Shown piece after piece: positions 1 through 47,735 of a stretch of DNA of 47,735 nt (the first letter of the stretch is position 1; every line of letters begins with the position of its first letter). Below the pieces are notes generated by a model. It saw nothing but the letters and a program-made list of their open reading frames with translations, made no database searches and was not told the origin of the DNA. Both the position numbers and the translations under genes were made by a program. This DNA comes from Planctomyces sp. SH-PL62 (GTDB lineage Bacteria > Planctomycetota > Planctomycetia > Planctomycetales > Planctomycetaceae): contig CAMDPX010000026.1 of the NCBI GenBank assembly GCA_945905295.1, forward strand, positions 1 to 47,735. Reading direction: 5' to 3'.

Positions 1-2282
1 GGGCTTTCGACGATCGCTTGGCCGAAATGGAATTGCCAGATGCGATTCGCGATCGAACGCCACGTCGTCGGGTGATCGGGGCGCGTGATCCATTTCGCGA
101 GAGCGGCTCGGCGGTCCCCTTCGCGATGCTCAGCCGGCAGCGAGAACTCGACCGGGACGTCTTTCAGAATCGGCAAGACTCCTGGCTTCGCGACCCCGCG
201 CGGTTGCAGCACGTTGCCGCGATGCAGGACTTGCACATCTCGCGGTTTGCCCTTGGTCGGTTGAAATCCGCCAGACGGCTCGAAGTCCGTCGCGGCGGCG
301 AGAACCATGCGGCCTTGAGGCAACGACGCGAGTTGTTGCTGCGCGGCTTTCAGGTCTTTGTCCAATTGCTCGCGGCGAGTCCGTCGTTCCGGCGTATTGA
401 TGCGGTCCAGAATCGCCTGATGTTGTTTCTGTATCTCAGCGAGTTGCGTGATCGCAGCGGTGTCTCCCGCTTGAGGCCAGATGCCGTCGGTCAAGTTCTT
501 CTTGCCCCACCGAGTCGGGGCTTCGATCGAGTCCAACGATGCGACTTCGGCCTTCAGCGCGGCGTTCTTGCCGTCAGCGGTCAGCACTTCGACTTCGGCC
601 AGCGCGAACATGAAGTCCTTCGTTCGTTCGCGCAGCTTCGGCACGGTGATGCGAACGAATCGAGCCTTCGTCCCTTTCGCGTTGATCGAAACCGGCACGA
701 GTCCGGGATTCGGAAAGTCCGTAGCCACAGGCGGCTCGCCAGTGGTTGGTGTTGCGTTGACGGAGATGACTGTTTGCGAATCGGGCACAGGCGAGCCGCC
801 TGTGGCTACGGTGAAACGCATCGGGAAACCGAAGCCTGCACCGATCCCGCCGAACTCGTCGTGGCAAGCGTGCAGCACGATGCGGTCGATCTCGACGACC
901 TGGCCGAGATCAATCTGCACCCACTTCGCCTTGTCGGGCGACGATTCAATCGCGCTGTGATAGCCGTACTCCGGCTTCTTCACGAGTGGCTGGGCTTTCG
1001 GCGTCAGCTCGCGAATCTCTTTCTCCAGCCGAGCGAACTCATCGCCGCCGGCAGTGCGAATCTCGGCATCCAGTGTCCCGATCTTCGATTGCAGGTCGCG
1101 CTGTTTTGCCAGCAGATCGCGGCGCTGCTGTTCGATCGACGGGTCGAGATCGTAGGGCCGTTCGGCACGATCGACGGCCGCGAAGACGGATTGCAGGCCG
1201 TAGTAATGCTGCTGCGTGAACGGGTCGAACTTGTGGTTGTGGCACTGAGCACACTGAATCGTCACGCTGCAAAACGTGTTGAGCGTCGCCGTGACCATCT
1301 CGTCCCGGTCGTTGTGCCGAGCCACTTTGCCGTCGATCTTCGATTCGGGAACCTCGACGTGCCCGATGAAATCCCACGGCCCGGCAGCGATGAAGCCGAG
1401 TCCGAGAATTCCGTCGGGAGTGCCGGGATACAACACGTCACCCGCAATCTGCTCTTTGACGAACCGGGCATACGGCTTGTCTTCATTGAACGAGCGAATG
1501 ACGTAATCGCGATACGGCCAGGCATTCGGCCGGAGCTTGTCCTTGTCATAGCCGCAGGTGTCGGCGTACCGCGCGACGTCGAGCCAATGTCGCCCCCAGC
1601 GCTCGCCGTAATGCGGCGACGCCAGCAGCCGATCGACAAGCCGCTCGTACGCGGCCGGATCGGGATCGTTCACAAACTCATCGATCTCATCCGGCCTCGG
1701 CGGTAATCCGGTGAGGTCATAAGTCAGACGCCGGATCAGCGTGCGACGGTCGGATTCGGGGGACGGAGTCAGTTTCATCTCATGCTGTTTGGCGAGAATG
1801 AACGCATCGACGGGATTCCGGATTTCAAATTTGAGATTTGAGATTTGAGATTTGAGACTTCCGACGTCCGGCACTGCCAGCCGCACGACCGGCTGGAAAG
1901 ACCACCAGTCGGTGTTCGTGACGACCGGATCCTCGATCCGAAATCCGTCCGGCCATTTCGCTCCGCCAGCAATCCACTGCTCGATCGCAGCGACTTCTTC
2001 GGATTTGAGTGGCTCGCCGTTCTTCGGCATTGCCGGGCGTTTGCCGTCTTGTGATTTCAAGACGGTGAGCAAGTGACTGTCGCTCGGTTTTCCGGGCTCG
2101 ACGAATCCGCTCTTGGATAACTCGTCGGTGGTTTGCAGCGCGAAGCTGCCTTTGTGATCGACGGAGTTGTGGCAACTCAGGCAGCGTTTCTGAATGACCG
2201 GGACGACACGGTCGCGAAACACGTCGTCGGCTTGCGCGGCGAGATTGAGAAATAAGACGAACAGAACCGCGCGGACTGACAT
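1..2282 (-). CDS. Secreted DUF1549/DUF1553 (PSD1-type) cytochrome-like protein, 3' end outside window
   Basis: Partial gene whose C-terminus lies beyond the window start. The N-terminus has a short signal peptide ending near AAQA, then a heme-type CLSCH motif about 35 residues in, as in planctomycetal cytochrome C-like domains. The DUF1549 signature CAQCHNHKFDP follows in the middle, then a discoidin/F5-8-like sugar-binding segment and the start of DUF1553. In this family the protein is exported and is usually encoded with a DUF1501 partner, here at 4036-5487. The substrate is unknown; a role in polysaccharide use is often proposed but is inference. Two repeats are translated inside it: the TTGAGAT repeat at 1821-1860 and a palindrome at 719-811. 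Start chosen at the ATG directly before the signal peptide. The plus strand here is open for 562 codons, but that reading has no family features. Confidence 0.9.
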   Translation of the reverse strand, partial: MSVRAVLFVLFLNLAAQADDVFRDRVVPVIQKRCLSCHNSVDHKGSFALQTTDELSKSGFVEPGKPSDSHLLTVLKSQDGKRPAMPKNGEPLKSEEVAAIEQWIAGGAKWPDGFRIEDPVVTNTDWWSFQPVVRLAVPDVGSLKSQISNLKFEIRNPVDAFILAKQHEMKLTPSPESDRRTLIRRLTYDLTGLPPRPDEIDEFVNDPDPAAYERLVDRLLASPHYGERWGRHWLDVARYADTCGYDKDKLRPNAWPYRDYVIRSFNEDKPYARFVKEQIAGDVLYPGTPDGILGLGFIAAGPWDFIGHVEVPESKIDGKVARHNDRDEMVTATLNTFCSVTIQCAQCHNHKFDPFTQQHYYGLQSVFAAVDRAERPYDLDPSIEQQRRDLLAKQRDLQSKIGTLDAEIRTAGGDEFARLEKEIRELTPKAQPLVKKPEYGYHSAIESSPDKAKWVQIDLGQVVEIDRIVLHACHDEFGGIGAGFGFPMRFTVATGGSPVPDSQTVISVNATPTTGEPPVATDFPNPGLVPVSINAKGTKARFVRITVPKLRERTKDFMFALAEVEVLTADGKNAALKAEVASLDSIEAPTRWGKKNLTDGIWPQAGDTAAITQLAEIQKQHQAILDRINTPERRTRREQLDKDLKAAQQQLASLPQGRMVLAAATDFEPSGGFQPTKGKPRDVQVLHRGNVLQPRGVAKPGVLPILKDVPVEFSLPAEHREGDRRAALAKWITRPDHPTTWRSIANRIWQFHFGQAIVES
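719..811. repeat. Palindromic element, family A, inside a CDS
   Basis: Arms CCGTAGCCACAGGCGGCTCG and its inverse (ending GTGGCTACGG) flank about 40 bases. Each arm contains its own small hairpin (ACAGGCG/CGCCTGT type). It is read in frame in the DUF1549/DUF1553 gene as TGGSPV ... TGEPPV. A half copy lies at 5514-5537. Confidence 0.8.
1821..1860. repeat. TTGAGAT short tandem repeat inside a CDS
   Basis: Four near-identical 7-9 base units of TTTGAGA type. On the minus strand they encode SLKSQISNLKSQIS-like residues between the cytochrome-like N-terminus and DUF1549. A related stretch sits in frame in asnB at 19194-19232. Confidence 0.75.
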
Positions 2283-2310
2283 GATCGGTCGAGCGTGTTG
2301 TGCGGTCCTT

Positions 2311-2332
2311 GGTTGGGCAGGAATGCCCAACC
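2311..2332. repeat. Short palindrome upstream of the DUF1549/DUF1553 gene
   Basis: GTTGGGCA / TGCCCAAC arms with a 4-base loop in the 5' leader of the gene starting at 2282. It is a single hairpin, the building block of the larger two-arm elements in this window. Confidence 0.6.
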
Positions 2333-2356
2333 TACGAACTGCGAGGGTTCGCCACG

Positions 2357-3232
2357 TCATTTCTTGCCTTTGTTGTTCGGCTTCTTGTTGTTCTTGTTGT
2401 TCTTGTTGTCGTTGGCCTTGTCGGCGGCTTCGGCCTGTTTGACCTGCTGTTGCTCGCGAGCCAGCTTGGCGGCGTCGGCGGCGATCTTGTCGCGGATGCG
2501 TTGCATCTTTTGGCCGGCGACTTCCGTGGCATCGGCGGCGGCTCGCATGGTTTGCAGAGCGGATTTGATCTCCGGATCGGCGTCGATCAGGTTGCGAAGT
2601 TTTGCTCGGAGTTGATTCACGCGGTCTTGAGCGTCCGCGAGTTTGGCTCGCGCAGTTTTCGCGGAGGAGTCCCCTTCAAGCGTGATCTGTTCGAGTTCGT
2701 TGGTCGCCAATTTGTCTTTGCTGGCCTGAGCGATCTCTTTGCGTTTCGCGTCAGCCGAGAGTCCCTCGTCCGCGCGGATTGCCTTCAATCGTGCTTCGGC
2801 TTCGGCCACCTTCTTCTCGGCGGCTTGATACTCGGGCTTGGCCTTGAGCGCCGTCAGCACGGGGGCAGCGGCCTCGTCATACTTTTTCTTGGCGGCGTCC
2901 TGTTCGGCCAGCGCCTTGTCGATGCCGGAGGTTTTTTCGTGCTTGGCCTCAATCCGCTTACGAGCCTCGTCCAATTTTTGGCGAGCGGCTTTCTCCTTGC
3001 CTTCGGTCTCGGCCAGCGCCTTCCGAGCGTCCTGCAAGTCTTTCTGATCGTCCTTCAATTTGTCTTGTGCCTGTTTGACGTCCTCTTTCTCGTTCTTGAT
3101 CTTCTGGTCGTCCTTCTTTTCCTGCGCAGCGTTGTTCTTGTTCTTGTTGTTCTTGTTGTCGGCCAGAGCGAAGGATGACAGCAGCGACAGGACCAACATC
3201 AGGCTCGATGCGTAATGCAGCCGATGAATCAT
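2357..3232 (-). CDS. Secreted Lys/Ala/Glu-rich coiled-coil protein
   Basis: 291 residues. A signal peptide (residues 1-23, ending FALA) is followed by an Asn/Lys-rich stretch (NKNNKNKNN). Next comes a long charged helix with heptad-like KDDQKxLQDARK spacing over most of the length, and a low-complexity Asn/Lys tail (NNKNNKNNKK). No enzyme domain is visible. The start is the second ATG of the frame (MIHRLHY), preceded by GGGAG at good spacing. It lies between the DUF1549/DUF1553 and DUF4058 genes on the same strand, so co-transcription is likely. A periplasmic spacer or surface protein is the most one can suggest. The Asn/Lys ends are coded by TTGTTGTTC-type repeats that could slip. Confidence 0.75.
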   Translation of the reverse strand: MIHRLHYASSLMLVLSLLSSFALADNKNNKNKNNAAQEKKDDQKIKNEKEDVKQAQDKLKDDQKDLQDARKALAETEGKEKAARQKLDEARKRIEAKHEKTSGIDKALAEQDAAKKKYDEAAAPVLTALKAKPEYQAAEKKVAEAEARLKAIRADEGLSADAKRKEIAQASKDKLATNELEQITLEGDSSAKTARAKLADAQDRVNQLRAKLRNLIDADPEIKSALQTMRAAADATEVAGQKMQRIRDKIAADAAKLAREQQQVKQAEAADKANDNKNNKNNKKPNNKGKK

Positions 3233-3280
3233 GAGGAAATCTCCCATCAACGATTTTCTTGGGAACGATGACAACGTTGA

Positions 3281-3994: not shown

Positions 3995-4035
3995 TGTGGA
4001 TTCCACGTCTTTCGCCCACGCCGATGGCGTTGGGG

Positions 4036-5487: not shown

Positions 5488-5513
5488 AGCGTTGAGACCT
5501 CATCGGGCGGATG

Positions 5514-5614: not shown

Positions 5615-5694
5615 GTCAGGCGAGCGGGGCGGCGTCAGCCCCCCGGTGCATTCATCACAGAACCGGGGGGCTGACGCCGCCCCGCTCGCCTGAC
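5615..5694. repeat. Large perfect palindrome, family B
   Basis: Two 33-base arms (beginning GTCAGGCGAGCGGGGCGGCG, ending with its inverse) are perfectly complementary around a 14-base loop. It sits between the DUF1501 and SGNH genes. A close relative lies at 26731-26806. Confidence 0.9.
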
Positions 5695-6481: not shown

Positions 6482-6577
6482 GGGGTCGGGTGTGCGAATT
6501 TCAGAATTTGCCGCCAGCGTCTTTTCGACTTCCCAAACTGTTTGTCGGCAAATTCTGAAATTCGCACACCCGGCCCC
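6482..6577. repeat. Palindromic element, family C (GGGGTCGGG tips)
   Basis: 32-base arms starting GGGGTCGGGTGTGCGAATTT and ending with the inverse, one mismatch, about 32-base loop. It lies between the SGNH gene and the end of the giant propeller gene. Members at 31294-31396 and 45278-45377 share the tip but differ inside. Confidence 0.85.
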
Positions 6578-6591: not shown

Positions 6592-9500
6592 CTATCGACC
6601 GGCCGTTTGTTTTTCGCTGGTCAGGAACGAGATCAGGTCCACGAACTCATCGACGGTCAGCGTCTTCTCCAAACCGTCGGGCATGATGCTGCCTGCGTGA
6701 GCTTGCGACTCCTCGATGTCCGCCTTGAGCAGCGAGTGCTTCTTCCCCTGATTGTCGGCGAGCACCAATGCGTCCGCTGTCTCGGAGACCTTGAGCCCGC
6801 TGAGCACTCGGCCGTCTTGCATGGCGACCGTCTGCGATTGAAAGCCGGCGGCGATTGTGCGGCTGGGGTCCAGCAGTGATTCGATGATGTGGATGCGCGA
6901 GAAGCGACTGCCGATGCCGGTCAGTTCGGGACCGATTTTCTCACCTTGCTCGCCCAGTCGATGACACTTCAAGCAATTCGACTTTTCGACGGTGAGGAAC
7001 AGCTTCTTTCCGCGTTCAACGTTGCCCGTGCGCGACAACGCCGCTTCGATGAGCCGTTCGTGTTCCGCTTTGGAACTTTTTGTTCGGAACCGAGCGTGAA
7101 ATTCGGCGGCCGCATCGGGAGTGTTGCCAAGCTGAATGACCAACCGGTTCGTCCCTTTGGCCAACTCCACTTCGCAGCGATCGGAATCCGGCTGGAAGCG
7201 GTGCGGTTCGGCGCGAGTCAAAACCGATTTGCCGTTCAGCCACACACGCAGCGGAGCGTTGCTCGACAGCAAAAACTGAGCGCTGGCTGGATCGGAGACT
7301 TTGAACTCAGAAAAGGCCACCCACTCTCCATGAATCTTCCCGTCCGTGCGCAGTCGCGACTCGGGACCGACTCCGAACAGGTGAGTCCATTGCGCGGTCC
7401 CCGTGTCGGCGTTCTTCACGGATCGGGAGTCGTCTCCCAAAAACTCGACGACTGCGGATGCCGTGTTCGGTGGCAAGGGGCCGACAACGTCCCAAGCGGC
7501 CAGGATGCCGCTCGCTCCCTGAAGTTCGCGAACGGAGAGATCCAACTCCGTCTGTCGTTCGACGGTGAACCCTTCCCTCCGCGACCACGATGACAGCATT
7601 TGAATCGCCAAATTCAACACCTCGCTTGATGAGTTGCGCGTCGCGATCTTCGTGACGGCCTGGGCCTGGACGTCGTCCCCTTCGCCGAGTTCCGCGAGGC
7701 ATTTCAAAGCGCTGAGCTGTGTCGTTCGATCCGACAGTGAAGCGACGGCCAGCGGGACCACGCGCGGTTCGCGCAGTTGCCGCAAGGCGTCGAGACTCGC
7801 GCGACGGGCGTCCGGGTTCTCGTGGTCGTTGCGAGCCATTCGGATCAGGCCCGGAATCGCCGCGCTGACTTCGAGTTGCCCCGCTGCCGTCGCGGCGGCA
7901 CGGCGAACGTCTGAGTCTTTGTCGAAGAGGCCATCCACAATGGCGACACCTCCGTCGGCGACGTGCAGCAATCCAATGGTCTCGAACGCCGCCGCACGCG
8001 CTGCCGCAGAACTTGACCGAGTGCCTCCCTGTAGCACGAGCGAGAGCGTTTGACTGACCTCGTTCTTGGCAAGCCATGTTCCATCGGCGCGCCGCCCCAA
8101 TTCACGCAGCACGTCGGCCAGCAACTCATCGTTCGCAAGCGGCGTCGTCAGCGGCAGCAACCGTCCTTCGCGTCCCTCGCCGAGCGATTCGCACCACATC
8201 TTCAAGGCCGTTTGTCGCAAGCTCGTAAGCTGCCGAGCATCCATCATCAAAGCGTGCAGTGTGCCTCGCCGATCCTCGGCCGGGTGCGTTCGCAGGGCAT
8301 CGAGAACAGCGGAAATCTTCTCGGGATCGTCTTCGTCTTTGAGCCACGCCGACAGTGTCTCCAGCTTGGTCGGAATCTTCTCACGCTGCATTCGTTTGAG
8401 CACTTCCAATCGCACGGCCTTGTCCGAGTCGGCCAGCAGCCGATCCAAGGCTTGTTCGATCAACTCAGTCTTCTCCCATTCCACGGTGTTCGCCGGACGC
8501 GGTGCGGGACGGAAGCCCCAATAGACCCACTGAGCCGGCGGCTTCCGATGCACGCGACTCAAGAGGTCTGCGTACTCGCGCCGGCGAGTGGGGTCGGTTT
8601 CCGTTCGCAGTCGGCCTTCCAAACCATTGACGATCTCCGGGGCCGGTTGATTGGCGATCGCCCGTAGCGCGACTTCGCGCAACCCAAATAGACGGGGCGG
8701 TCTTAAGCTCGGATCTTGGCCGAGCGGAGGAGTTGGCGGTCGATGCGCACGGACTTCGAGCAAGCGCAACACTGCCGGCCAATCGCCACAGCGACGCAAC
8801 GCTTGTTGAGCGGCGTGTGCGGCCGCCGCGTTCATCCACCGGATGTTTTGCGACATCCAAAGTGGAGTCTCGGTCCACTTCATTCGCCCCAGTGCGATGA
8901 AGATCTCCAGTGGAGCGATCGTTGACCGCGTATGGTCAAGCCTGCCCAATCGCTTCGCGACATTCACAACCCCCGATCCGGAATCGAGCCGATGTTCAAC
9001 CAACACCGGATCATGCAAATCAGCCAACGCCCGAATGGCCTGCCGTTGAATGCGGACTTCTTCGTAGGACACAATTTCTTCGTGGGACATAGCGAGCTCG
9101 AACAACTCATCGGTTGCCCGCGAACCGAGCACATGCGCGAGAATCCACACGAAGTGCATGCGCCCTTGCAGATTGAGTTTCGCCTTTCGCAGCAACTGCA
9201 AAACACCGCCAGGATCATCACGGCCATGCCGCTCAATTTCGAGTTGAGCTTCCAGCCGTTCGTAGTAGCTGTCCGAGTTCAACCGCTTGGCCCAACCGGC
9301 GACGTCGTGGGGCACGTTTTCATCGTGCCCGGTTTTCACGGGCACGTTGGAAACGTGCCCCACATACTGCACTCGATAAATCCTCGCGCGGCCGCGCTTC
9401 GGACGTTGCCCGTCCGCCCAATCGGCGATCAGCATTGAGCCGTCGCGATCGACCACAAGGTCCGTCGGCTTGAAGCCGTAGGGGTCGTTCTCCGCACCAG

Positions 9501-10503: not shown

Positions 10504-10517
10504 GCTGAATTCTCCAA

Positions 10518-10700
10518 ACACGCTGTGTCTTCCGCCAAGCTCGGCCAGATGCCAGCGGCGAACTCTTACGCACCTGGATCGCGTTCTTCAAGAAGACGCA
10601 AAAGTTCTTGGAGAAGACGCACCTCCGCCAACGCAAAGACTTGCTCAAGACCGAATGCCACCGCATGGGCCTCGCCCCGTGCTTGGAATTGACCGAGTAA
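10518..10700 (+). pseudogene. Possible 3' remnant of an unrecognised gene
   Basis: An open stretch without a start codon ends at TAA 10698-10700. It reads like a helical, basic protein tail (LRTWIAFFKKTQKFLEK, HLRQRKDLLK). It lies immediately upstream of the minus-strand propeller gene, in a 414-base stretch otherwise without a gene. It could be the end of a transposase or another truncated gene. I do not recognise the family, and chance cannot be ruled out. Confidence 0.25.
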
Positions 10701-11497: not shown

Positions 11498-11665
11498 ATG
11501 GCTACCGTCGAGGCAAGTAGGCGAACGGCAGAAGAAAACATACCCGCCAATACAAGCCCGACGCGCCAGCGAGTGCATTCATTCGGAGTGTTGTGTGGGA
11601 TTCACTCGCTGGCGCGTCGGGCTTGTATTGGTACGTTTTCACCACCCGTATTAGGCCGCGCGTGA
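11498..11665 (+). CDS. Short ORF interrupted or built by a palindromic element
   Basis: 55 codons with a strong GAGGAG site before the ATG. The first 17 residues (MATVEASRRTAEENIPA) look like a normal gene start. The remainder is the translation of the palindrome at 11547-11631 (NTSPTRQRVHS ... HSLARRACIG). The simplest reading is a gene whose 5' end survives after the element landed in it, or a decoy frame. It stops directly before the second 14-base direct repeat. Confidence 0.35.
   Translation: MATVEASRRTAEENIPANTSPTRQRVHSFGVLCGIHSLARRACIGTFSPPVLGRA
11547..11631. repeat. Palindromic element, family D
   Basis: Arms CCAATACAAGCCCGACGCGC... and inverse ending TTGTATTGG, about 29 bases each, around a 27-base loop. 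The core AGCCCGACGCGCCAGCGAG recurs at 24213-24282. Confidence 0.85.
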
Positions 11666-16697: not shown

Positions 16698-17731
16698 TGT
16701 CGGAGCGCAAAGTGACGCCGAAGGCCAAGCGCAAGTCTCGTGTCGGCGGGGCGCTCAAGCCTGCGGCCAAGGCCACGAAGACCGCGACCGCAGGCACGAA
16801 GGCCAAGTCCCCTCCAAAGGCAGGCGCGGACGCGCCCGCTTCCCAGCTCAGCGACCAGCGGAGCCGAGACCTGACGGGATGGCGCGAGGAGACACTGGCC
16901 CGCATGCGGGCGCTGATCCTGGAAGCCGACCACGAGATGATCGAGGAGCGGAAATGGAGGAAGCCGTCGAATGCGATGGCGGGGGTTCCGGTCTGGTCAC
17001 ACCACGGGATCGTCTGCACCGGCGAGACGTACGCGAAGGTCGTGAAGCTCACGTTCGCGCGGGGAGCCAGCCTCCCCGACCCATCGCGACTCTTCAATTC
17101 CAGCTTGGAAGGGAACACGCGCAGGGCGATCGACATCCACGAAGGAGAGCAGATCGACGCGAGGGCGTTCAAGACGCTCGTGAAGGCCGCTGTTTCCCAA
17201 AATACTATGCCAAGAGTTCCTGGCAGCGATCAGCCGGAACGCGCTAGCGTCCGGTTCGAGCCAGACCGAACCGGGGCTAGCGCCCGACGGCTGATTAAGA
17301 AGAAAGCGAAATCAGGTGCGAGTCAGGCCCCGCCGGTGAAACTTCTTTCCGGCGGCAACCCTCAGATCGCGAAGGCCGATGGCGACGCTCCCGTGCAGGC
17401 TTACATCGCGGCCATGCCGAGTTGGAAACGGGACGTCGGCCGCCGCCTCGACGCGCTCATCGTGCGCACCGTCCCCGGCGTGAGCAAAGCCGTGAGGTGG
17501 AACTCCCCCTTCTATGGCATCGAGGGCCAAGGCTGGTTCCTCGGCTTCCATACCTTCACGAACTTCGTCAAGGTGAGCTTCTTCCGAGGCACGTCTCTGC
17601 GCCCCGTTCCCCCCGGAGGCACGGGCAAGGAAGGTCGCTGGATCGACATCCACGAAGACGATCTCGACGAGTCGCAGATGGCGACGTGGATCCGGCAGGC
17701 GGCCGCCCTGCCCGGCTGGGGCAAGTCGTAG
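16697..17731 (+). CDS. Tandem DUF1801 protein joined across a palindromic element
   Basis: 344 residues. After a Lys/Ala-rich tail-like N-terminus, residues 58-168 are one DUF1801 domain (WRKPSNAMAGVPVWSHHGIVCTG, AKVVKLTFARG). Residues 228-344 are a second (VSKAVRWNSPFYGIEGQGW, FVKVSFFRGTSL, RWIDIHEDDLDE). Between them, residues 178-200 are the translation of a family F palindrome (PERASVRF...TGASARRLI). DUF1801 proteins (YdhG-like) are small single-domain proteins of unclear role, so this double form probably arose when two neighbouring genes became one frame through the element. The ATG overlaps the previous stop (TAATG) with GGAGG seven bases upstream. Confidence 0.85.
   Translation: MSERKVTPKAKRKSRVGGALKPAAKATKTATAGTKAKSPPKAGADAPASQLSDQRSRDLTGWREETLARMRALILEADHEMIEERKWRKPSNAMAGVPVWSHHGIVCTGETYAKVVKLTFARGASLPDPSRLFNSSLEGNTRRAIDIHEGEQIDARAFKTLVKAAVSQNTMPRVPGSDQPERASVRFEPDRTGASARRLIKKKAKSGASQAPPVKLLSGGNPQIAKADGDAPVQAYIAAMPSWKRDVGRRLDALIVRTVPGVSKAVRWNSPFYGIEGQGWFLGFHTFTNFVKVSFFRGTSLRPVPPGGTGKEGRWIDIHEDDLDESQMATWIRQAAALPGWGKS
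17229..17295. repeat. Palindromic element, family F, inside a CDS
   Basis: ATCAGCCGGAACGCGCTAGC... with a nearly inverse right arm CGAACCGGGGCTAGCGCCCG... . The left arm matches the intergenic copy at 43667-43741 (27-base perfect arms). It joins two DUF1801 domains in frame. Confidence 0.8.
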
Positions 17732-17951: not shown

Positions 17952-20009
<2,058 letters not shown>

Positions 20010-20044
20010 GATGGTGGCTCCCCCAATAGTCGCCGGCACACTCC

Positions 20045-20180
20045 GAGGCTGTGAAAGAATTGGTAGCTGAACTCGCCAAAGTTCAGTTTTCTCGGCGAAT
20101 TCTGAAGTCTGGCGACTTCAGCTACCCAAAACTTCACAGGCTCTCCGTGTGCCGTTGGCCGAGGTCATCGGCACACGGAG
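20045..20180. repeat. Composite palindrome upstream of asnB
   Basis: Outer arms GAGGCTGTGAAAGAATTGGT... and its inverse contain mini-hairpins CTGAACT...AGTTCAG and CTGAAGTC...GACTTCAG, i.e. the two arms differ compensatorily. A further perfect 12-base pair CTCCGTGTGCCG/CGGCACACGGAG lies at 20143-20180. It occupies the region between asnB and the small gene at 20351. Confidence 0.75.
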
Positions 20181-24199: not shown

Positions 24200-24212
24200 T
24201 GCGGAGACAAAA

Positions 24213-24282
24213 ACAGCCCGACGTGTCAGCGAGGGATTCGGAGATCACCACAACTCCGAATTTCTCGTCGGCGAGTCGGGCT
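24213..24282. repeat. Palindromic element, family D
   Basis: CAGCCCGACGTGTCAGCGAG...CTCCGAAT/CTCGTCGGCGAGTCGGGCTG with a short loop. It sits 14 bases after the TPR gene stop and just before the end of the convergent DUF1501 gene, where it may also terminate transcription. Confidence 0.8.
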
Positions 24283-24290
24283 GATTTCGT

Positions 24291-28920: not shown

Positions 28921-28982
28921 CGTGGGGCAGGTTTTCAACCTGCCCGGACTCAAGCTCGGGCAGGTTGAAAACCTGCCCCACG
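28921..28982. repeat. Palindromic element, family G
   Basis: Arms CGTGGGGCAGGTTTTCAACC(TGCCCG) and its exact inverse (26 bases each); each arm is itself a hairpin (GGGCAGG/CCTGCCC). Relative to 9307-9363 the bases that differ do so in paired positions. Confidence 0.9.
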
Positions 28983-31293: not shown

Positions 31294-31396
31294 GGGGTCG
31301 GGAGTCTTTTTCAGGTCGGCCGAATGGCCACTCACCGCGGGAATGTGATTCGTTTTCATCAAGCGCGACGCCGACCTGAAAAGGACTCCCGACCCC
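31294..31396. repeat. Palindromic element, family C (GGGGTCGGG tips)
   Basis: GGGGTCGGGAGTCTTTTTCA... and inverse, 27-base arms with one mismatch. Same tip as 6482-6577 and 45278-45377. It lies between the divergent propeller and lipoyl-carrier genes. Confidence 0.85.
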
Positions 31397-31951: not shown

Positions 31952-31959
31952 AGGAGGGA

Positions 31960-32025
31960 TTAGGGGCTGGGGGTTAGGGGTTAGCAACAGCGAAGCGACC
32001 CTAACCCCTAGTCCCCAGCCCCTAA
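31960..32025. repeat. Palindrome between lipoyl carrier and ferredoxin genes
   Basis: TTAGGGGCTGGGGGTTAGGG and its near inverse (CTAACCCCTAGTCCCCAGCC) around about 17 bases. It ends five bases before the ferredoxin start, and a short copy fills the leader. Confidence 0.75.
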
Positions 32026-32030
32026 CCCCT

Positions 32031-33143: not shown

Positions 33144-33226
33144 CGGGAGGGCGAGGCTCCTGCCGAGCCGCAGAGGCCATCGACACCAATTCCCGGTAGC
33201 GGCTCGGCAGGAGCCTCACCCTCCCG
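33144..33226. repeat. Palindrome between ferredoxin and cyclase genes
   Basis: CGGGAGGGCGAGGCTCCTGC... and its near-perfect inverse, 28-base arms around a 27-base loop. It starts at the first base after the ferredoxin stop and ends 11 bases before the cyclase ATG. Confidence 0.85.
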
Positions 33227-33237: not shown

Positions 33238-35505
33238 ATGAGCAGTGACATCACCCCCGAACGCATCCGCTGCGCCTACGAAACCGCGAAGGTCGCTTTG
33301 CTGGCGGAGATGGTGAGTGAGCCGGTCGCGGCGGATGATCCCGTTCAGAAGTTGCTCGACACGCCGGTCAGCGAGATGCGGCATTGGGTCGGTGAGCTAT
33401 CCACCTCAGCGCTCTCAACGGCGACGGCGGTCATGGCGTTGGAGCAGATGCGGCGGCAGTACGTCTCCGCGGGACGAGTTGTGCCTGAGGCGTGGAATCG
33501 GTTGATTCATGGCGGCATTGAATGGCTGATCGCTCATCAAAACAAAGACGGTGGCTGGGGCGATACGGTCAAGAGCATCAGTAACATCTCGACGACGATG
33601 CTGTGCCATGCGGTGTTGCATACCGTAGGCCAGGCTTTCCAGCCTGACCCCGATCGCGCGGTTGACGCAGACCTGAAACTTGACGCTCCAACGTGCGATC
33701 GGGTCAGGCTGGAAAGCCTGACCTACGCCGCTGCCTACATCGACCGCGCCGGTGGCGTAAAAGCTGTCATTGCACGCTACGGAAAGGACCGCACGTTTTC
33801 AGTGCCGATCCTCACGCACTGCGCGCTCGCCGGACTCGTCGATTGGGACGACGTCATCTCGCTGCCGTTTGAGCTCGCCTGTATCCCCGCGCGGTTTTAC
33901 GCGGCGGTGAGGTTGCCGGTCGTGAGTTACGCGCTGCCGGCGTTGATTGCGATTGGGCAAGTGCGGTTTCATTTTCGTCCGTCGTGGAATCCGCTGCGGC
34001 GCTGGCTGCAACGCTGGGCGAAGCCAGCCAGCTTGCGCGTGCTGGAACGGATCCAGCCTCCCAACGGCGGGTTCTTGGAAGCGACTCCGCTGACGAGCTT
34101 CGTCACCATGAGCCTCGCCGCGATGGGATTGATTGATCACCCGGTGACACAGCGCGGCATCGAGTTCATCGTGGCGTCGGCACGCGCTAGTAGTGACCCG
34201 ATTCATCGGGTCGAAGGCGCGGCGGAGAATGATGCCGAACCGCGACCGCATGAATGCGGTCACTACGAGCGCGTCTCCTGGCCGATCGACACGAACCTCG
34301 CGACGTGGGTGACGACTCTGTCGATCAACGCCTTGGGGGACGACGTGCCGCTCGACGCCCGCCCCGGCCTGCGAGCCTGGCTGCTCCGCCAGCAATACCG
34401 AGTCGTCCACCCCTACACCAACGCCGCCTCCGGCGGCTGGGCCTGGACCGACCTCCCCGGCGGAGTCCCCGATGGCGACGACACACCGGGTGCGATGCTG
34501 GCGCTGATGAAGATGAGCGGGGTAAAAATCAAACACGACGGCGGTGTTTCCGGAGGAACTTGGAAAAGTGAAGCCGCTTTGAATCGAGCAATGGAAGCGG
34601 ACGTCGTTGATGCGACAAAGTCCGACGATCTTCAAAGAGTCGCGAGTGTCGATGCGAACGCACTATTTGCCGCCGCTTCGTGGCTGATCGCGCTCCAAAA
34701 TCGTGACGGCGGTATTCCCACATTTTGTCGGGGCTGGGGCACATTGCCGTTTGATCGCAGTTCGCCCGATCTCACTGCACACGTTATTCGCGCGCAACGA
34801 ACTGTCATGGAATTGTCCGCCGGACGCTGGGATGAGCAACGCACGAGAGCCGATTGGCACGGCATTCGGCGAATTGAGTTCATTGATCTCATTGCGAATG
34901 TCGGAAACGGCCTCCGGTTTCTCGAAAAAGCTCAACGCCCCGACGGCTCCTGGCTGCCGTTGTGGTTTGGGAATCAGCAGGCTCCGAACGACGAGAATCC
35001 GACGTACGGAACGGCAAAGGTGTTGGCGGCGTTTCAGGCGTTGGGGCGGATGTCGGACGAGTCGGCCGTGCGCGGCGCGAGGTGGCTCGTCGAGAACCAA
35101 AACCCCGACGGCGGCTGGGGCGCGGGATTGGGAACTCCGTCGAGCATCGAGGAAACCGCGCTGGCACTCGAAGCGTTATTGGGACAACGTAGCCATCACG
35201 CTCCGCTTGATGAGCCGAGCGCGGAGACAGCGCGGAATGACGATCAAACGTCGATCTTGCCATCGGAGCGGCAGGGCCGTTCGGCTCCTCACGCGGAGCG
35301 TGAGGGCTACGTTGAAGGCGACGAAACCGCCATTTCGCTCGGATTATCCTGGTTAATCGCTCGCGTCGAAGACGGTCGATTCCGTGAACCTTCCCCCATC
35401 GGTTTCTATTTCGCCAAGTTATGGTATTTTGAGGCCCTGTATCCGCTGATCTTCACCGTCGCGGCGCTCCGCAAAGCGGTCGGTGTTGAGGGGAGAGGAC
35501 CATGA
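33238..35505 (+). CDS. Class II terpene cyclase, squalene-hopene cyclase-like (prenyltransferase/squalene oxidase repeats)
   Basis: 755 residues. The class II acid motif DxDD is at 412-415 (PDGDDTPGAM), as in squalene-hopene and tetraprenyl-curcumene cyclases. QW-type repeats recur: QNKDGGWGDT, QNRDGGIPTF, QRPDGSWLPLW and QNPDGGWG, plus WGTLPFDRSSPDLTAH. Unlike canonical hopene cyclases it is followed by a polyprenyl synthase, so its substrate may be a C35 or other polyprenyl chain rather than squalene. Three palindromic elements (33624-33727, 34183-34273, 35187-35313) are translated in frame. The stop overlaps the next gene's ATG (ATGA). The chosen start is the ATG after the palindrome at 33144-33226; the open frame upstream reads through that repeat. 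Confidence 0.88.
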   Translation: MSSDITPERIRCAYETAKVALLAEMVSEPVAADDPVQKLLDTPVSEMRHWVGELSTSALSTATAVMALEQMRRQYVSAGRVVPEAWNRLIHGGIEWLIAHQNKDGGWGDTVKSISNISTTMLCHAVLHTVGQAFQPDPDRAVDADLKLDAPTCDRVRLESLTYAAAYIDRAGGVKAVIARYGKDRTFSVPILTHCALAGLVDWDDVISLPFELACIPARFYAAVRLPVVSYALPALIAIGQVRFHFRPSWNPLRRWLQRWAKPASLRVLERIQPPNGGFLEATPLTSFVTMSLAAMGLIDHPVTQRGIEFIVASARASSDPIHRVEGAAENDAEPRPHECGHYERVSWPIDTNLATWVTTLSINALGDDVPLDARPGLRAWLLRQQYRVVHPYTNAASGGWAWTDLPGGVPDGDDTPGAMLALMKMSGVKIKHDGGVSGGTWKSEAALNRAMEADVVDATKSDDLQRVASVDANALFAAASWLIALQNRDGGIPTFCRGWGTLPFDRSSPDLTAHVIRAQRTVMELSAGRWDEQRTRADWHGIRRIEFIDLIANVGNGLRFLEKAQRPDGSWLPLWFGNQQAPNDENPTYGTAKVLAAFQALGRMSDESAVRGARWLVENQNPDGGWGAGLGTPSSIEETALALEALLGQRSHHAPLDEPSAETARNDDQTSILPSERQGRSAPHAEREGYVEGDETAISLGLSWLIARVEDGRFREPSPIGFYFAKLWYFEALYPLIFTVAALRKAVGVEGRGP
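33624..33727. repeat. Palindromic element inside the cyclase gene, family H
   Basis: CGTAGGCCAGGCTTTCCAGC... and inverse, 33-base arms. Each arm carries the mini-hairpin CAGGCT...AGCCTG. It is translated as VGQAFQPD...RVRLESLTYA about 130 residues after the start. Confidence 0.85.
34183..34273. repeat. Palindromic element, family E, inside the cyclase gene
   Basis: CGCGCTAGTAGTGACCCGAT... and its near inverse. Tip hairpins are CCCGAT/ATCGGG in the left arm and CCGCAT/ATGCGG in the right. Related to 39959-40045. Translated in frame as ASSDPIHRVEG...HECGHYER. Confidence 0.85.
35187..35313. repeat. Palindromic element inside the cyclase gene, family I
   Basis: AACGTAGCCATCACGCTCCG... and the inverse TCGGCTCCTCACGCGGAGCG..., 33-base arms separated by about 60 bases. 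Each arm contains a CACGC...GCGTG-type hairpin. Translated as SHHAPLDEPSAE...APHAEREGYVEG near the C-terminus. Confidence 0.8.
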
Positions 35506-36094: not shown

Positions 36095-38095
36095 ATGTCG
36101 ATTGCCACAACGTCCTTGCACGAGCCTGAAGAGCGATTGGTTGAGCACACATCGCTTGCCCAGCCGCATTCGCCTGTTGAACGGCGAAACGGGGACGCTG
36201 CGACGCATCGGCGGACGTCCGACATCCAAGACGATGACGACGAACCGATGCCGAAGCGGAAGAAAATTCGCTCAAGCACATCGCATCTCAAGATCGTGCC
36301 GGAGACGTTGGAGCTGCGCGAACTCGTCAAAGCGAAGGCGCAGCAGTTTGCGGAGAAGCTCGATCACTCGAAGCCGTTCAGCAAGAGTCAGCTTCAAGTC
36401 TGGGCAATGCAGTTGCTCGGTGAGATGTCGCTGCCAGAGAAGTACAGCGGGTTCGCGGCGGTGCTGATCGGCAACTTCTTTTGGCGTCGGCAATTCCTGG
36501 CGACGCCGTTCGAGCGGCGGATGCTGTTGTTGCCGCACTGCCTGAAGCACGCTGAGGGCTGCCCGGCTGAGTACACCGAATTCGGGCTCGACTGCGAGCG
36601 CTGCGGAGCTTGCACGATCGCCGACTACAAAGTGCGGGCCGAGCAACTCGGTTACAAAGTGCTTGTCGCCGAAGGCTCGCCGATCGTGCTGAAGATCATC
36701 GTCGGCGGATATGTCGATGCGATTCTGGGAGTTGCGTGCCTGAACGTGCTGGAGAAGGCGATCGACAAAGTCCTGATCGCGGGCGTGCCGAGCTATGCCG
36801 TGCCGCTGCACTCCGGCGATTGCCACAACACGTCTCTCGACGAGTCGTGGATTTGGGAAGTGCTCGACAAGTACGAGCCGATGCCGGATCAGCGTCTGAC
36901 CGGATATGTCTCGGTGATGCGTGCCGCCAATCGTCTGTTCGACGAGCACTTCGATCGCCTGCTGCCGCGAGTCCGCAGCAAGACACCGGAAGCGGCCGCG
37001 ACCCCGCTCGGTAAGACCGAAGATATTTCTTACGACTGGTTGCGCAATGGCGGCAAACGCTTTCGACCGTTTATCACGCTGGCCGCCTACGACGCCGCGA
37101 CCGGTGGCTCGTGTCTGAAGAATTTCGACTCCAGCTCGCAACCGTTCGAGTTCCCCGACTCGGTCGCGCGCGTGGCGATGTCGATCGAAGCGTTCCACAA
37201 AGCATCGTTGGTTCACGACGACATCGAAGACGACGACCTCTTCCGTTATGGCCGCGAGACCCTGCACCGCACACACGGCCTCGGCCCGGCGATCAATGTG
37301 GGCGATCATCTGATCGGGTTGGGATATAAGTTGATCGCCGCCTCTCGTAGCTCAGGCGGCCCGCCTGAGTCCGCAGTCGCGGCAGAACAAAACGGGCACG
37401 CGGGCCGCGTACCCCACGATGTCGCGTGCGACGTTCTCGAACGCATGGCTGCCGCCCACATCAAGCTCTGCGACGGTCAAGGCGCGGAGATGTTCTGGCA
37501 ACAGAATCCGACGCTCGACTTCACACCGCTCGACGCTCTGCAAATCTACGCGCTCAAAACTTCGCCTGCGTTTGAGGCGGCGTTGTATGCCGGGCTGCGC
37601 ATGGCCGGTTCGGTCGAGAAGTACGAAACGCTGATCGGCCCGTTCTGTCGTCACGTCGGCATCGGGTTCCAAATCCTCAATGACTTGAAGGATTGGCGCG
37701 GCGACAACGACAACAAGATGGTCGCTGGCCAGGACGCGCTTGCCCTGCGGCCGACGTTGATGATGGCTCTCGCGTGGCAGGCCGCCAGCGCCGAGCAGCG
37801 TCAACTCATGGAACGCTGCTACTTCGACCGCGAAGAGCAAGACGCCATTCGCCTCGCGCGCCTCCGCCGCTTGTATGAGGAACTCGGCGTCTTCGAGAAA
37901 GCCGAACGCCTGATCGAGAAGTCGCGTGACCGAGCCGAACTGCTCGCCGACGATGTTGAGTCCGACGAGATTCGACAACTCTTGTACTTCCTCGTGGACA
38001 CCGTCATGGCCGACGAGCAAGACAAAGACCCGCGCGACTCGATGCCCAAGCCATCGCCAATGCTCGTGTCGCTTCCGGTGACAACCGGAGCCTAA
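36095..38095 (+). CDS. DUF116 - polyprenyl synthase fusion protein
   Basis: 666 residues. After about 90 variable residues, residues 130-270 are a DUF116 domain with Cys149, Cys156 and CERCGAC (Cys167/170/173), a potential iron-sulfur or zinc site. From about residue 300 the sequence is a polyprenyl synthase: [24 protein letters not shown] with DDxxD Asp375-Asp379, [12 protein letters not shown] and a second Asp-rich region LNDLKDW (Asn529, Asp530, Asp533) in which the first Asp is Asn. Polyprenyl synthases condense IPP with allylic diphosphates to make long-chain isoprenoids. Two short palindromes are translated at 37347-37418. Fusion to DUF116 and the upstream cyclase suggest a dedicated isoprenoid product. 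Confidence 0.86.
37347..37418. repeat. Two adjacent mini-palindromes inside the prenyl synthase gene
   Basis: CTCAGGCGG/CCGCCTGAG and GGGCACGCGG/CCGCGTACCC hairpins, sharing a GCGGCCCGC-type core in opposite sense. They encode about 24 residues (GGPPESAV...GRVPHD) between the helix after the first Asp-rich motif and the next helix. Confidence 0.65.
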
Positions 38096-38108: not shown

Positions 38109-38423
38109 ATGAAGACGACCGTCAGCGACAACGGACAGATCACGCTCCCGTCAACACTGCGCCGAAAGGATCACATTCGTGCCGGGCAACAGTTTGAGAT
38201 TCAACGGCTGAAGGCTGGTGAATACTTGCTGAAGCAGAAGCCCGAATCGCCACCGTCGGCGAATAACAAAAATCTTGTGGATTGGCTTTTGGCCTGCCCG
38301 GAGAAGGGTTGGTTCCAACCGATGGAGTCTGAATCCACCGATACGCTCTTCCGAGAGGATCTCTTTTCCGAAGAGCCTCAACCTCGTCGAAAGAAGTCGC
38401 GTAAGGCGAAAACAAAAACCTAG
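38109..38423 (+). CDS. AbrB/SpoVT-type antitoxin
   Basis: 104 residues. MKTTVSDNGQITLPSTLRRK is the swapped-hairpin AbrB (MazE/VapB-like) DNA-binding fold. The C-terminal part (WLLACPEKGWF, then basic KKSRKAK) would bind the toxin. Strong AAGGAGG before the start. It lies 13 bases after the prenyl synthase and 8 bases before the PIN gene. Likely autoregulatory with its partner (family knowledge). Confidence 0.85.
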   Translation: MKTTVSDNGQITLPSTLRRKDHIRAGQQFEIQRLKAGEYLLKQKPESPPSANNKNLVDWLLACPEKGWFQPMESESTDTLFREDLFSEEPQPRRKKSRKAKTKT

Positions 38424-38431
38424 GCGCGGCC

Positions 38432-38854
38432 ATGCTCTATCTGGTCGATAGCAATGTGCTCAGCGAAGCGACTCGTCCGCTGCCCAATCTCCGAGTGATC
38501 GACTGGCTGCGCGAAAACGAGCCGGAATTGGCCATCAGCCCAGTCGTGCTTGGCGAAATTGAGTACGGAATCCTGATTCTGCCGCCCGGTCGCCGGAAAG
38601 ATCGACTCCTGCTCTGGTTCGCGAATCGAGTCCAGTCCCTGCAAATCGTTTCGTTCGACGCGCCGGTCGCATCCGAATGGGCACGGATGATGGCGGGGTT
38701 GAAAGCGAAGGGACTGTCAATGGCCGTCAAAGACAGTTTGATCGCCGCAACGGCGCGAGCACATCGTCTGACCGTCGTGACTCGAAACACCTCCGACTTC
38801 CGTCACGCGGGTGTGCCGCTGTTGAATCCCTTTGACGAACCGGTCGCGGAGTGA
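38432..38854 (+). CDS. vapC: PIN domain ribonuclease toxin (VapC type)
   Basis: 140 residues. PIN active-site acids: Asp6 (LVDSNVLSE), Glu42/Glu44 (GEIEYG), Asp101 (AVKDSLIA) and Asp122 (TSDF), the usual quartet. VapC toxins cleave tRNA or rRNA. Paired with the AbrB-like gene upstream. Confidence 0.9.
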   Translation: MLYLVDSNVLSEATRPLPNLRVIDWLRENEPELAISPVVLGEIEYGILILPPGRRKDRLLLWFANRVQSLQIVSFDAPVASEWARMMAGLKAKGLSMAVKDSLIAATARAHRLTVVTRNTSDFRHAGVPLLNPFDEPVAE

Positions 38855-39958: not shown

Positions 39959-40045
39959 CGCGCTCGTAGTGACCCGATTGATCGGGTCGAAGAGCTTCGG
40001 TTTGTGTTGCTCAAAGACCCCATGAATGGGGTCACTACGAGCGCG
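39959..40045. repeat. Palindromic element, family E
   Basis: CGCGCTCGTAGTGACCCGAT... and its near inverse. Tip hairpins are CCCGAT/ATCGGG and CCCCAT/ATGGGG. It begins at the first base after the cysK stop. Related to 34183-34273 inside the cyclase gene. Confidence 0.9.
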
Positions 40046-41499: not shown

Positions 41500-41581
41500 G
41501 CACACGGATGCGAGCGGCGCACACGGATGAAGTCAAAGCGGACGTGCCGTTCATCCGTGTGTGCCGCTCGCATCCGTGTGC
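41500..41581. repeat. Palindrome with internal direct repeat
   Basis: GCACACGGATGCGAGCGGCG... and near-inverse arms, 32 bases with one mismatch. GCACACGGATG appears twice per arm. It lies between the propeller gene and the convergent membrane gene. Confidence 0.8.
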
Positions 41582-43666: not shown

Positions 43667-43741
43667 TGAGCCGGAACGCGCTAGCGTCCGGTTCGGCGAT
43701 AAGAATAAACGACAAACCGGACGCTAGCGCGTTCCGGCTCA
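43667..43741. repeat. Palindromic element, family F
   Basis: TGAGCCGGAACGCGCTAGCG... and exact inverse, 27-base arms around 21 bases. A copy inside the DUF1801 gene lies at 17229-17295. It is upstream of the divergent Rossmann gene and the first signal peptidase. Confidence 0.92.
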
Positions 43742-43795
43742 GCGTCGCCGACTTCCTCTTTGGCCAGACGCTTGCGGGCGGCTACAACTCCGCCG

Positions 43796-45265: not shown

Positions 45266-45277
45266 CGTTCAAACTCA

Positions 45278-45377
45278 GGGGTCGGGTGTTCGGTTTTTCG
45301 GAATTGGCGGGAAGAACGCTCGGATTCCAAGTGATGCTCACCTCCCGCCAATTCCGAAAAATCGAACACCCGACCCC
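45278..45377. repeat. Palindromic element, family C (GGGGTCGGG tips)
   Basis: GGGGTCGGGTGTTCGGTTTT...and inverse, 34-base arms around 30 bases, between the two signal peptidase genes. Interior sequence is related to 6482-6577. Confidence 0.88.
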
Positions 45378-45413
45378 GGCCAATTCCACTTCCTACAGCC
45401 AGACTCTCCACGC

Positions 45414-47363: not shown

Positions 47364-47408
47364 ATGATTTGAGTATTGAAATGGATGCGACCGGCATTTC
47401 GGTTTTGG

Positions 47409-47599
47409 CCCCAACGGGGACTGACTCGAAAGCCCAGGGCGACACCCTGGGTTAGTGCAAAACCAACAGGCAATAAGCCCCAACGGGGCGCAACTTTCAT
47501 CGCATCCGTGCAAGTTGCGCCCTTTCAGGGCTGAAGAATCTTTCTCGTTCGACCAACCCAGGGCGATGCCCTGGGCTTTCGAGTCACGCCCCGTTGGGC
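47409..47599. repeat. Nested palindromic element
   Basis: Outer arms CCCCAACGGGGACTGACTCG... and the inverse ending ACGCCCCGTTGGG carry hairpins CCCAGGG/CCCTGGG. An inner pair at 47476-47531 (AGCCCCAACGGGGCGCAACT) has a matching inverse. It fills the space after the second signal peptidase. Confidence 0.8.
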
Positions 47600-47616
47600 A
47601 ACGCCGTTAAGTATTT

Positions 47617-47735
47617 TTACATAGCGAGCGTTAGGTGCTGTTTGAGTTGGAGTTTGTGTTGTCGTGTGGCGGCGATGATGTTTGGTTTTCCGGCGTGAGG
47701 CTTGTCTTTGTTGTCGGGACGGTAGCGTGCTTGTT
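47617..47735 (-). CDS. C-terminal end of an unidentified gene, truncated by the window
   Basis: 39 codons ending ARYRPDNKDKPHAGKPNIIAATRQHKLQ then LKQHLTLAM before TAA. Basic and without stops up to the window edge. It could be a transposase tail, but I do not recognise it. Confidence 0.35.
   Translation of the reverse strand, partial: QARYRPDNKDKPHAGKPNIIAATRQHKLQLKQHLTLAM

What the first reader, a model, noticed from the sequence alone, without database searches (positions are those of the whole stretch)
1..47735. About twenty-five palindromic elements, at least six genes carrying them in frame
More than a dozen inverted-repeat families lie between genes (5615, 6482, 11547, 20045, 24213, 26731, 28921, 31294, 31960, 33144, 39959, 41500, 43667, 45278, 47409) and inside genes without breaking them (719, 9307, 17229, 19811, 33624, 34183, 35187, 37347). 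This resembles the Rickettsia palindromic elements known to insert in frame into genes (family knowledge), but with more families and density. Frame-neutral insertion suggests selected or constrained mobility.
Basis: partly seen in the sequence, partly recalled or inferred. Interest (0 to 1): 0.85.

Follow-up and report, generated by a model that had tools for sequence, protein, structure and literature searches.

The report
Mobile palindromes that decorate protein loops
A lake planctomycete genome is strewn with dozens of families of short, probably mobile DNA palindromes, many sitting in frame inside genes, where related species carry unrelated palindromes in the same protein loops; the elements resemble known REP/RAYT repeats but are unusually diverse and common inside genes.

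Summary
A strict finder gives 20 in the window against 0-1 in ten shuffles. Two arm families have 445 and 388 matches genome-wide, controls 0. Eight elements lie inside six open genes. In the sample plus window, 52 of 261 palindromes lie inside called genes.

Best reading: many families of REP/REPIN- and TIR-like mobile palindromes. Some have a Y1 (RAYT) transposase gene flanked by the same palindrome, and density tracks Y1 gene number across 12 genomes (rho 0.79). But only 53 of 257 palindromes match a Y1-flanking one. In-gene copies look like survivors: length differences are multiples of 3 in 106 of 121 coding and 51 of 167 intergenic comparisons, and the elements are not especially stop-free.

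The striking part: related genomes carry unrelated palindromes in the same protein loops (27 of 39 events share a site; about 3 expected at random in coding DNA). Limiting insertion to indel-tolerant stretches largely explains this (mean 20.8; 25.1 weighted), so targeting is not needed. One published precedent exists (recB, PMC3733652). New variant of a known kind.

The parts
719..811 (.). palindrome, GTAG-tagged (CAGGCGGCTCGCC arms), inside PSCyt2/PSD1 gene 3-2360(-)
   Evidence: z -11.9
5615..5694 (.). palindrome GGCGAGCGGGGcGGCGTCAGCC family, intergenic; arm at 47 other places in the own sample
6482..6577 (.). full-length palindrome GGGGTCGGGTGT..., intergenic; arm matches palindromes near the Y1 genes of L008/L009
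9307..9363 (.). palindrome GTGGGGCACGTTTTC, inside DUF7133/HEAT gene 6592-10521(-); arm family 445 matches genome-wide (up to 2 mismatches)
11547..11631 (.). palindrome AGCCCGACGCGCCAGCGAG family, intergenic
17229..17296 (.). palindrome AGCCGGAACGCGCTAGCGTCCGGTT family, inside gene 16697-17731(+) (DUF1801)
   Evidence: z -8.6
19811..19886 (.). 7-nt-repeat palindrome (GGGGTGA/GGGGCGA), inside asparagine synthase gene 17952-20039(-)
20034..20154 (.). imperfect palindrome with GTAGCTGAA core, overlaps the start of gene 17952-20039(-)
24207..24290 (.). palindrome AGCCCGACGTGTCAGCGAG, intergenic; related palindromes at the site in G129 and G139, others in L038 and L043
26732..26805 (.). palindrome GGCGAGCGGGG family, intergenic
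28921..28982 (.). palindrome GTGGGGCAGGTTTTC between two PQQ-repeat genes; same family in several relatives, unrelated palindrome at the same junction in G134 and G148
31294..31396 (.). full-length palindrome GGGGTCGGGAGTC, intergenic; same family flanks Y1 gene L007
31955..32030 (.). 7-nt-repeat palindrome (TTAGGGG) filling the space from a stop codon plus SD-like AGGAGG to the next ATG; several relatives have other repeat palindromes here
33144..33226 (.). palindrome CGGGAGGGCGAGGCTCC directly after a stop codon; G103, G134 and G148 have other palindromes here
33624..33727 (.). GTAGGyCAGGCTTTCC palindrome in frame in cyclase-like gene 33238-35505(+)
34182..34274 (.). GTAGTGACCCG palindrome in frame in the same gene; six palindrome families at this loop in own plus relatives, empty in three genomes
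35185..35314 (.). GTAGCCATCACGCTCCGC palindrome in frame in the same gene; five or six families at this loop, depending on the merging threshold
37345..37419 (.). degenerate GTAG/GTGG palindrome in frame in DUF116-polyprenyl synthase gene 36095-38095(+); palindromes of four families at this loop in relatives
   Evidence: z -1.6
39959..40045 (.). GTAGTGACCCG palindrome directly after a gene end
41500..41581 (.). palindrome with CACACGGATG direct repeats in each arm, intergenic
43667..43741 (.). palindrome AGCCGGAACGCGCTAGCGTCCGGTT, intergenic
45278..45377 (.). full-length palindrome GGGGTCGGGTGTTCGG, intergenic; same family flanks Y1 gene L009
47410..47598 (.). long palindrome CCCAGGGC...CCCAACGGGG; arm matches a palindrome beside a Y1 gene (L268)
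33238..35505 (+). squalene-hopene cyclase-like gene with three in-frame palindromes
36095..38095 (+). DUF116-polyprenyl synthase gene with one palindrome-derived loop

Best explanation
The elements are many parallel families of short mobile palindromes of the REP/REPIN and TIR kind. Two hairpin arms in inverted orientation, or one long palindrome, are spread through the genome by single-strand Y1 (RAYT/IS200-like) transposases. Shown: multi-copy families, presence/absence at orthologous sites, and Y1 genes flanked on both sides by the same palindrome for several families. Inferred: that those Y1 enzymes move the elements, and that families without a found partner move the same way. Insertion is not frame-aware. 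It reaches genes and spacers alike, and copies survive in genes only where the net length change is a multiple of 3, no stop is read and the protein loop tolerates extra residues. Because few loops tolerate this and insertion is frequent, the same loops are filled again and again, in different species, by unrelated palindromes. In detected pairs the arms change less than the spacer and less than the flanks, often in a coordinated way, which suggests copying from other family members or selection on the hairpin (inferred, and weakened by detection bias).
For: Families: 261 palindromes fall into 78 arm clusters, 33 with two or more members and 45 singletons. Genome-wide arm matches 445 and 388, backward-read controls 0. 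Tags: outer GT[AG]G 92 of 257 vs 4.5% of random 12-mers, GGGGTC 26 of 257 vs 0.14%. Y1 link: L007 (221 aa, HWH) has 87-nt GGGGTCGGGAGTC palindromes 19 nt before its start and 30 nt after its stop; L009, L263 and L272 are arranged alike with other palindromes; L322 lies between GTAGGACGGCC palindromes. Same-family palindromes on both sides by one fixed rule: 7 of 40 Y1 loci vs 11 of 4000 random places (L009 and L272 miss that rule). Density vs Y1 count in 12 genomes: Spearman 0.79, p 0.002. Selection after insertion: 106 of 121 coding vs 51 of 167 intergenic length differences are multiples of 3. Site reuse: 27 of 39 coding events share a site with an unrelated event; uniform coding null mean 3.2, max 10 of 500 draws; null on 94 indel-tolerant bins mean 20.8, max 30; indel-weighted mean 25.1 with 168 of 500 draws reaching 27. 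Looser merging of families gives 26 of 38 and the same picture. Arms: 91 same-family pairs at 34 sites diverge 6.4% in arms, 13.6% in flanks, 26.9% in spacers; both-arm changes 37 vs 5.5 expected.
Against: Only 53 of 257 palindromes (4 of 20 in the window) have an arm matching a Y1-flanking palindrome; for the commonest families (GTGGGGCAsGTT, GGCGAGCGGGG) none was found. Only 40 of the 91 Y1 matches in the genus were read at the DNA level, plus 12 partly overlapping loci. G114 has no Y1_Tnp match (only a C-terminal fragment like L007) yet 6 palindromes in 50 kb. G103 holds 185 GGGGTCGGGAGTC arms but its best-scoring relative of the L007 protein is 36% identical; G148 (152 arms) has one at 59% without GGGGTC palindromes beside it. 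At six of the 12 coding sites printed, where relatives look empty, the empty allele has 4-74 nt in place of the insert, so these are not clean insertions; at 32537 the replaced 74 nt are conserved in the eight other genomes. Against evenly drawn tolerant bins the site sharing is still borderline high (10 to 20 of 300 draws reach it). Genome size also correlates with density (0.61, p 0.035) and no phylogenetic correction was made. The arm-conservation figure requires detectable palindromes; without that filter, with unrelated sequence mixed in, arms 20.9%, flanks 15.4%, spacers 28.3%.
Confidence: 0.75

Rival explanations
1. Palindrome exchange: an existing palindrome (a hairpin or cruciform) is the preferred target, and one family replaces another at the same junction by recombination or template switching, so that loops act as docking sites.
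For: At 28921 several more distant relatives and the window share one family while G134 and G148 have an unrelated palindrome at the same junction. At 32537 a conserved 74-nt stretch is replaced by a 107-nt palindrome-bearing stretch in G122 and G139. At B2 39417 and B3 53593 the arms switch subfamily together while the spacer stays alike. Sharing is borderline above evenly drawn tolerant bins.
Against: At 34182 the junctions differ by up to about 17 nt between families (my reading) and three genomes have a short empty loop, which fits independent insertion. Site sharing does not exceed the indel-weighted tolerance null.
Confidence: 0.15
2. The inserted peptides are functional: loops are kept palindromic or varied because the protein benefits (diversified loops).
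For: Every allele printed for the four cyclase and prenyl synthase sites keeps frame; the same loops are used repeatedly.
Against: The encoded peptides are unrelated between species, spacers change fastest (26.9%), and the prenyl synthase loop is short in all eight aligned family members outside the genus and two within it. The loop model has pLDDT under 50.
Confidence: 0.07
3. The palindromes are maintained as RNA or DNA devices (terminators, mRNA stabilisers, structured ribosome-binding spacers) and the in-gene copies are by-products.
For: Intergenic copies lie close to gene 3' ends (median 21.5 nt vs 78.5 nt to 5' ends; 70 of 144 vs 30 of 152 within 20 nt). At 31955, by eye, at least six of the ten genomes printed have an SD-like motif, then an inverted repeat, then the start codon, with differing repeats.
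Against: Orientation of host gaps (co 98, div 27, conv 23) is close to that of all gaps of 80 nt or more (co 255, div 75, conv 50); 84 of 234 comparisons of an own palindrome with a relative are short or empty.
Confidence: 0.2

Closest known systems
GTAG-tagged REPs / REPINs and RAYT transposases (PMC3733652: abstract, section 15 and passages seen; PMC3116915 and PMC3686654: passages)
   Same: Outer GT[AG]G tag, hairpin arms in inverted pairs, high copy number, Y1 genes flanked by the same repeat, some copies in genes; PMC3733652 reports different REPs at about the same site of recB in two Xanthomonas species, and Planctomycetes among the hosts.
   Different: 33 multi-member arm clusters (78 with singletons) in one genome sample, 52 of 261 palindromes inside genes, site reuse by unrelated families at several loops, long non-GTAG palindromes and 7-nt-repeat palindromes side by side.
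TIRs of TIRYT transposases, consensus GGGGWSAS (PMC3733652, passages)
   Same: GGGGTC palindromes flank Y1 genes L007 and L009; GGGGTCAGG and GGGGACAG families fit the consensus.
   Different: The commonest type here is GGGGTCGG, which departs from the consensus at one base; copies inside genes are common.
Rickettsia palindromic elements (RPE)
   Same: Palindromes inserted in frame in many genes.
   Different: No CGTC tag excess; unrelated host; Y1 partner for some families. RPE sequences were not compared; general RPE facts are from PMC3733652 and recall.
Heptameric inverted repeats of Xanthomonas (and heptamer repeats of Nostoc; PMC4692102, passages)
   Same: 7-nt tandem units in two inverted arrays, as at 19811 and 31955.
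   Different: Other units (TTAGGGG, TTGGTCA, GGGGCGA); some inside genes here.
Enterobacterial RU/ERIC elements in genes (PMC2759123, passages)
   Same: Small mobile sequences with open frames fused into genes.
   Different: Three repeat-unit classes described there; not compared by sequence here.

Membership tests
REP/REPIN (GTAG) | 5' GT[AG]G tetranucleotide at the outer end of the arm | tested here: met
   92 of 257 sample palindromes vs 4.5% of random 12-mers; so met for about a third, not for the rest
REP/REPIN (GTAG) | high copy number, inverted pairs | tested here: met
   GTGGGGCAsGTTTyC: 222 forward + 223 reverse matches genome-wide (up to 2 mismatches), control 0
REP/REPIN (GTAG) | cognate RAYT flanked by the same REP | tested here: inconclusive
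   met for several families (L010, L011, L263, L322) but none found for the commonest ones
REP/REPIN (GTAG) | almost only extragenic | tested here: not met
   52 of 261 palindromes of all kinds lie at least 60 nt inside called genes; exact GTGGGGCA arms 8 in genes, 17 between
TIR/TIRYT palindromes | GGGGWSAS motif and position beside a Y1 gene | tested here: inconclusive
   outer GGGGWSAS in 7 of 257, GGGGTC in 26 of 257; L007 and L009 flanked by GGGGTCGG palindromes
Rickettsia palindromic elements | CGTC tag at one end (as in PMC3733652) | tested here: not met
   6 of 257 vs 7.4% of random 12-mers
Rickettsia palindromic elements | sequence kinship with RPE families | not tested
   no RPE sequences were fetched
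REP/REPIN and RAYT | enzymatic cleavage and movement by the Y1 protein | not testable with these tools
   needs biochemistry or population sequencing

The most novel reading that the evidence does not exclude
A standing palindrome is itself the docking site: unrelated palindrome families exchange for one another at fixed junctions, in spacers and in protein loops, replacing the old insert and part of the target. A genus-wide set of protein loops would thus be re-coded again and again by a pool of mobile hairpins, a loop-diversifying process made of transposable elements.
Probability: 0.12. Interest if true: 0.85.

Novelty: new variant of a known kind. Interest (0 to 1): 0.55.

Why it matters
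PMC3733652 describes REPs inside genes in several species, with most REPs outside genes. Here a whole genus offers orthologous loops with and without inserts, and with unrelated inserts, so one can measure insertion, loss and tolerance of new peptide segments in conserved enzymes. It also gives transposase-palindrome pairs (L007, L009, L263, L272, L322) for testing how REP-like elements move, which the abstract of PMC8266576 (seen in a search listing) calls poorly understood. The negative result matters as well: neither a frame preference of insertion nor special targeting is needed to explain the in-frame copies and the shared sites.

Tried and rejected
Rickettsia-type elements: rejected on the end tag. 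Frame-aware or stop-free design: rejected. Targeted reuse of sites: the uniform null is far exceeded, the indel-weighted null is not, and the evenly drawn tolerant null is borderline. Search for genes bounded by same-family palindromes in the sampled loci: 8 listed cases, one a Y1 gene (L263), the rest not recognisable as transposases by eye, so no partner was found for the commonest families. Length of in-gene elements modulo 3: no fixed value for GTAG types (15/9/15), 7 of 9 GGGGTC types are 1 mod 3; too few to infer a target duplication. Divergence without the palindrome filter was spoiled by forced alignment of unrelated inserts. Structure: the AlphaFold model of the prenyl synthase is weak (mean pLDDT 57.6, 18 sequences); it only places the insert (421-436, pLDDT under 50) between two helices. 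One protein search of the plasmid collection gave nothing. The 15 of 121 coding length differences that are not multiples of 3 sit mostly at two sites (6 at B4 16477-16615, 5 at W 34536-34662; the other four are single); at the first, the sequences printed show misplaced anchors. No tree was built, so events are counted by unrelated arms, not by phylogeny.
Full report
Setting. The window is contig C26 of an 8.6-Mb, 476-contig planctomycete genome, 57-61% G+C in 5-kb steps. The 80 kept relatives with named records are nearly all labelled planctomycete metagenome assemblies. Ten loci (L034-L043) are syntenic with parts of 17.8-39.2 kb of the window. The genus in the genome search has 12 genomes including this one.

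Observation. Of 23 positions, 21 are among the 25 inverted repeats shown by the repeat finder, and 22 fold beyond all of 60 shuffles each. The exception, 37345-37419, is degenerate in this genome although relatives have palindromes there that the finder detects. A strict finder gives 20 in the window, 0-1 in ten shuffles and 241 in an 838-kb own sample. These 261 elements fall into 78 arm clusters, 45 of them singletons. Single REP-like hairpins such as those near 2300 and 5510 come on top (seen; arms counted).

Location. With a simple codon-usage gene caller (607 genes, 87% coding), 158 of 261 palindromes are intergenic, 52 lie at least 60 nt inside a gene, 8 inside but nearer an end, and 43 overlap a gene end. 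A few in-gene cases have long loops and low scores and may be chance. Scaling the sample to the genome would give about 2,500 palindromes and some 500 inside genes; this is an extrapolation from the longest contigs. Intergenic copies hug gene 3' ends (median 21.5 nt, against 78.5 nt to 5' ends).

What they are. The outer end carries GT[AG]G in 92 of 257 and GGGGTC in 26 of 257, against 4.5% and 0.14% of random 12-mers; CGTC is below chance. Genome-wide, the GTGGGGCAsGTTTyC arm has 445 matches (up to 2 mismatches) and the GGGGTCGGGAGTC arm 388 (up to 1), with zero backward-read controls. The second family is large in the window's genome, G103 and G148 (388, 185, 152), small in six others (1 to 29) and absent in three, so families expand per lineage. 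A third kind has arms of tandem 7-nt units, as at 19811 and 31955; inverted heptamer arrays are reported in Xanthomonas (PMC4692102, passages).

Transposase link. The own genome has 13 matches to Y1_Tnp and the genus 91 in 11 of 12 genomes. Forty of these were read at the DNA level. L007 codes a 221-aa protein with an HWH motif and sits between two 87-nt GGGGTCGGGAGTC palindromes, 19 nt before the start and 30 nt after the stop. L009 lies between GGGGTCGGGTGT palindromes, the family of window 45278 (the right one overlaps the gene's end); L272 and L263 are arranged alike with other palindromes. L010 and L011 have GTAGGGTGGGACC and GTAGGTTGGGACTCC arms on both sides of the Y1 match, and L322 has GTAGGACGGCC palindromes. 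By one fixed rule, same-family palindromes on both sides occur at 7 of 40 Y1 loci and 11 of 4000 random places. Palindrome density over 12 genomes correlates with Y1 number (Spearman 0.79, p 0.002), without correction for kinship, and also with genome size (0.61, p 0.035). Against a complete account: only 53 of 257 palindromes match a Y1-flanking arm, G114 has palindromes but no Y1_Tnp match, and G103 has 185 arms of the L007 family but its best-scoring related protein is 36% identical.

In-gene copies and the genus. In the cyclase-like gene and the polyprenyl synthase gene, all printed alleles differ by multiples of 3 at the four sites examined. Over four blocks, 106 of 121 non-zero length differences at coding palindrome sites are multiples of 3, against 51 of 167 at intergenic ones. 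At 34182 own and relatives carry six palindrome families by the finder, plus a degenerate repeat in G056, and three genomes have a short empty loop. The prenyl synthase loop is short in the eight aligned family members outside the genus and in two inside it; the other eight genus sequences have longer, differing loops between the same conserved residues, in five of which the finder detects a palindrome. The best PDB match (1wy0) has a gap there.

Is the site sharing special? In four blocks I found 84 coding instances at 35 sites. Keeping arms of 18 nt or more (77 instances) and joining same-family copies gives 52 events; 39 lie where at least four relatives are covered, and 27 of these share a site with an unrelated event. 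Random coding positions give 3.2 on average (maximum 10 in 500). Positions drawn from 94 coding bins with an ordinary in-frame indel give 20.8 (maximum 30), and 25.1 when weighted by indel number, with 168 of 500 draws reaching 27. A rerun with looser joining gives 26 of 38 events; 10 to 20 of 300 evenly drawn and 84 to 98 of 300 weighted draws reach the observed value over four thresholds. So the sharing is largely accounted for by few loops being tolerant, with a borderline rest. PMC3733652 (section 15) already notes different REPs at about the same site of recB in two Xanthomonas species; I saw no report of the effect at scale in the listings of paper searches, which cover only open-licence papers.

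Details that do not fit simple insertion. At six of 12 coding sites printed, the empty allele has 4-74 nt in place of the insert; at 32537 the replaced stretch is conserved in eight other genomes. Among 91 same-family pairs at 34 sites, arms diverge 6.4%, flanks 13.6% and spacers 26.9%, and 37 arm positions changed on both sides against 5.5 expected, 28 of them complementary in both genomes. The first figure is biased by detection; without the filter, arms no longer come out lower than flanks, though that run mixed in unrelated inserts. Copying between family members, exchange of palindromes, or selection on the hairpin are all open.

Verdict. Real, abundant and mostly explained by known kinds of mobile palindrome with selection after insertion; unusual in diversity, in the share inside genes and in the repeated decoration of the same loops.

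Noticed in passing
window 31937-32045 and relatives: Between the stop codon of one gene and the ATG of the next, at least six of ten genomes have an SD-like motif, then inverted repeats of differing families, then the start codon; G148 has no spacer (TGAAATG). A hairpin-bridged ribosome-binding site is possible.
   Followed up: partly
window 38109-38854: MazE-like (just under the Pfam cut-off) and PIN-domain genes in tandem, probably a toxin-antitoxin pair.
   Followed up: no
window 11699-12775: One protein with a TIR domain and a DinB-like domain.
   Followed up: no
window 13488-14468: IS110-family transposase gene.
   Followed up: no
L009:1423-2406: The Y1 protein flanked by GGGGTCGGGTGT palindromes also has a DnaA-type helix-turn-helix domain (PF08299).
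   Followed up: no
window 1830-1860 and 19180-19237: Tandem TTTGAGA units without a strong palindrome, the second in a gene where G129 and L043 have a GTGGGGCACG-type palindrome.
   Followed up: no
L207:6663-6785: Long in-gene palindrome GCGCTCGGCGCGGGTCTCC; its stretch matches many places in G150, G134, G148 and others.
   Followed up: no
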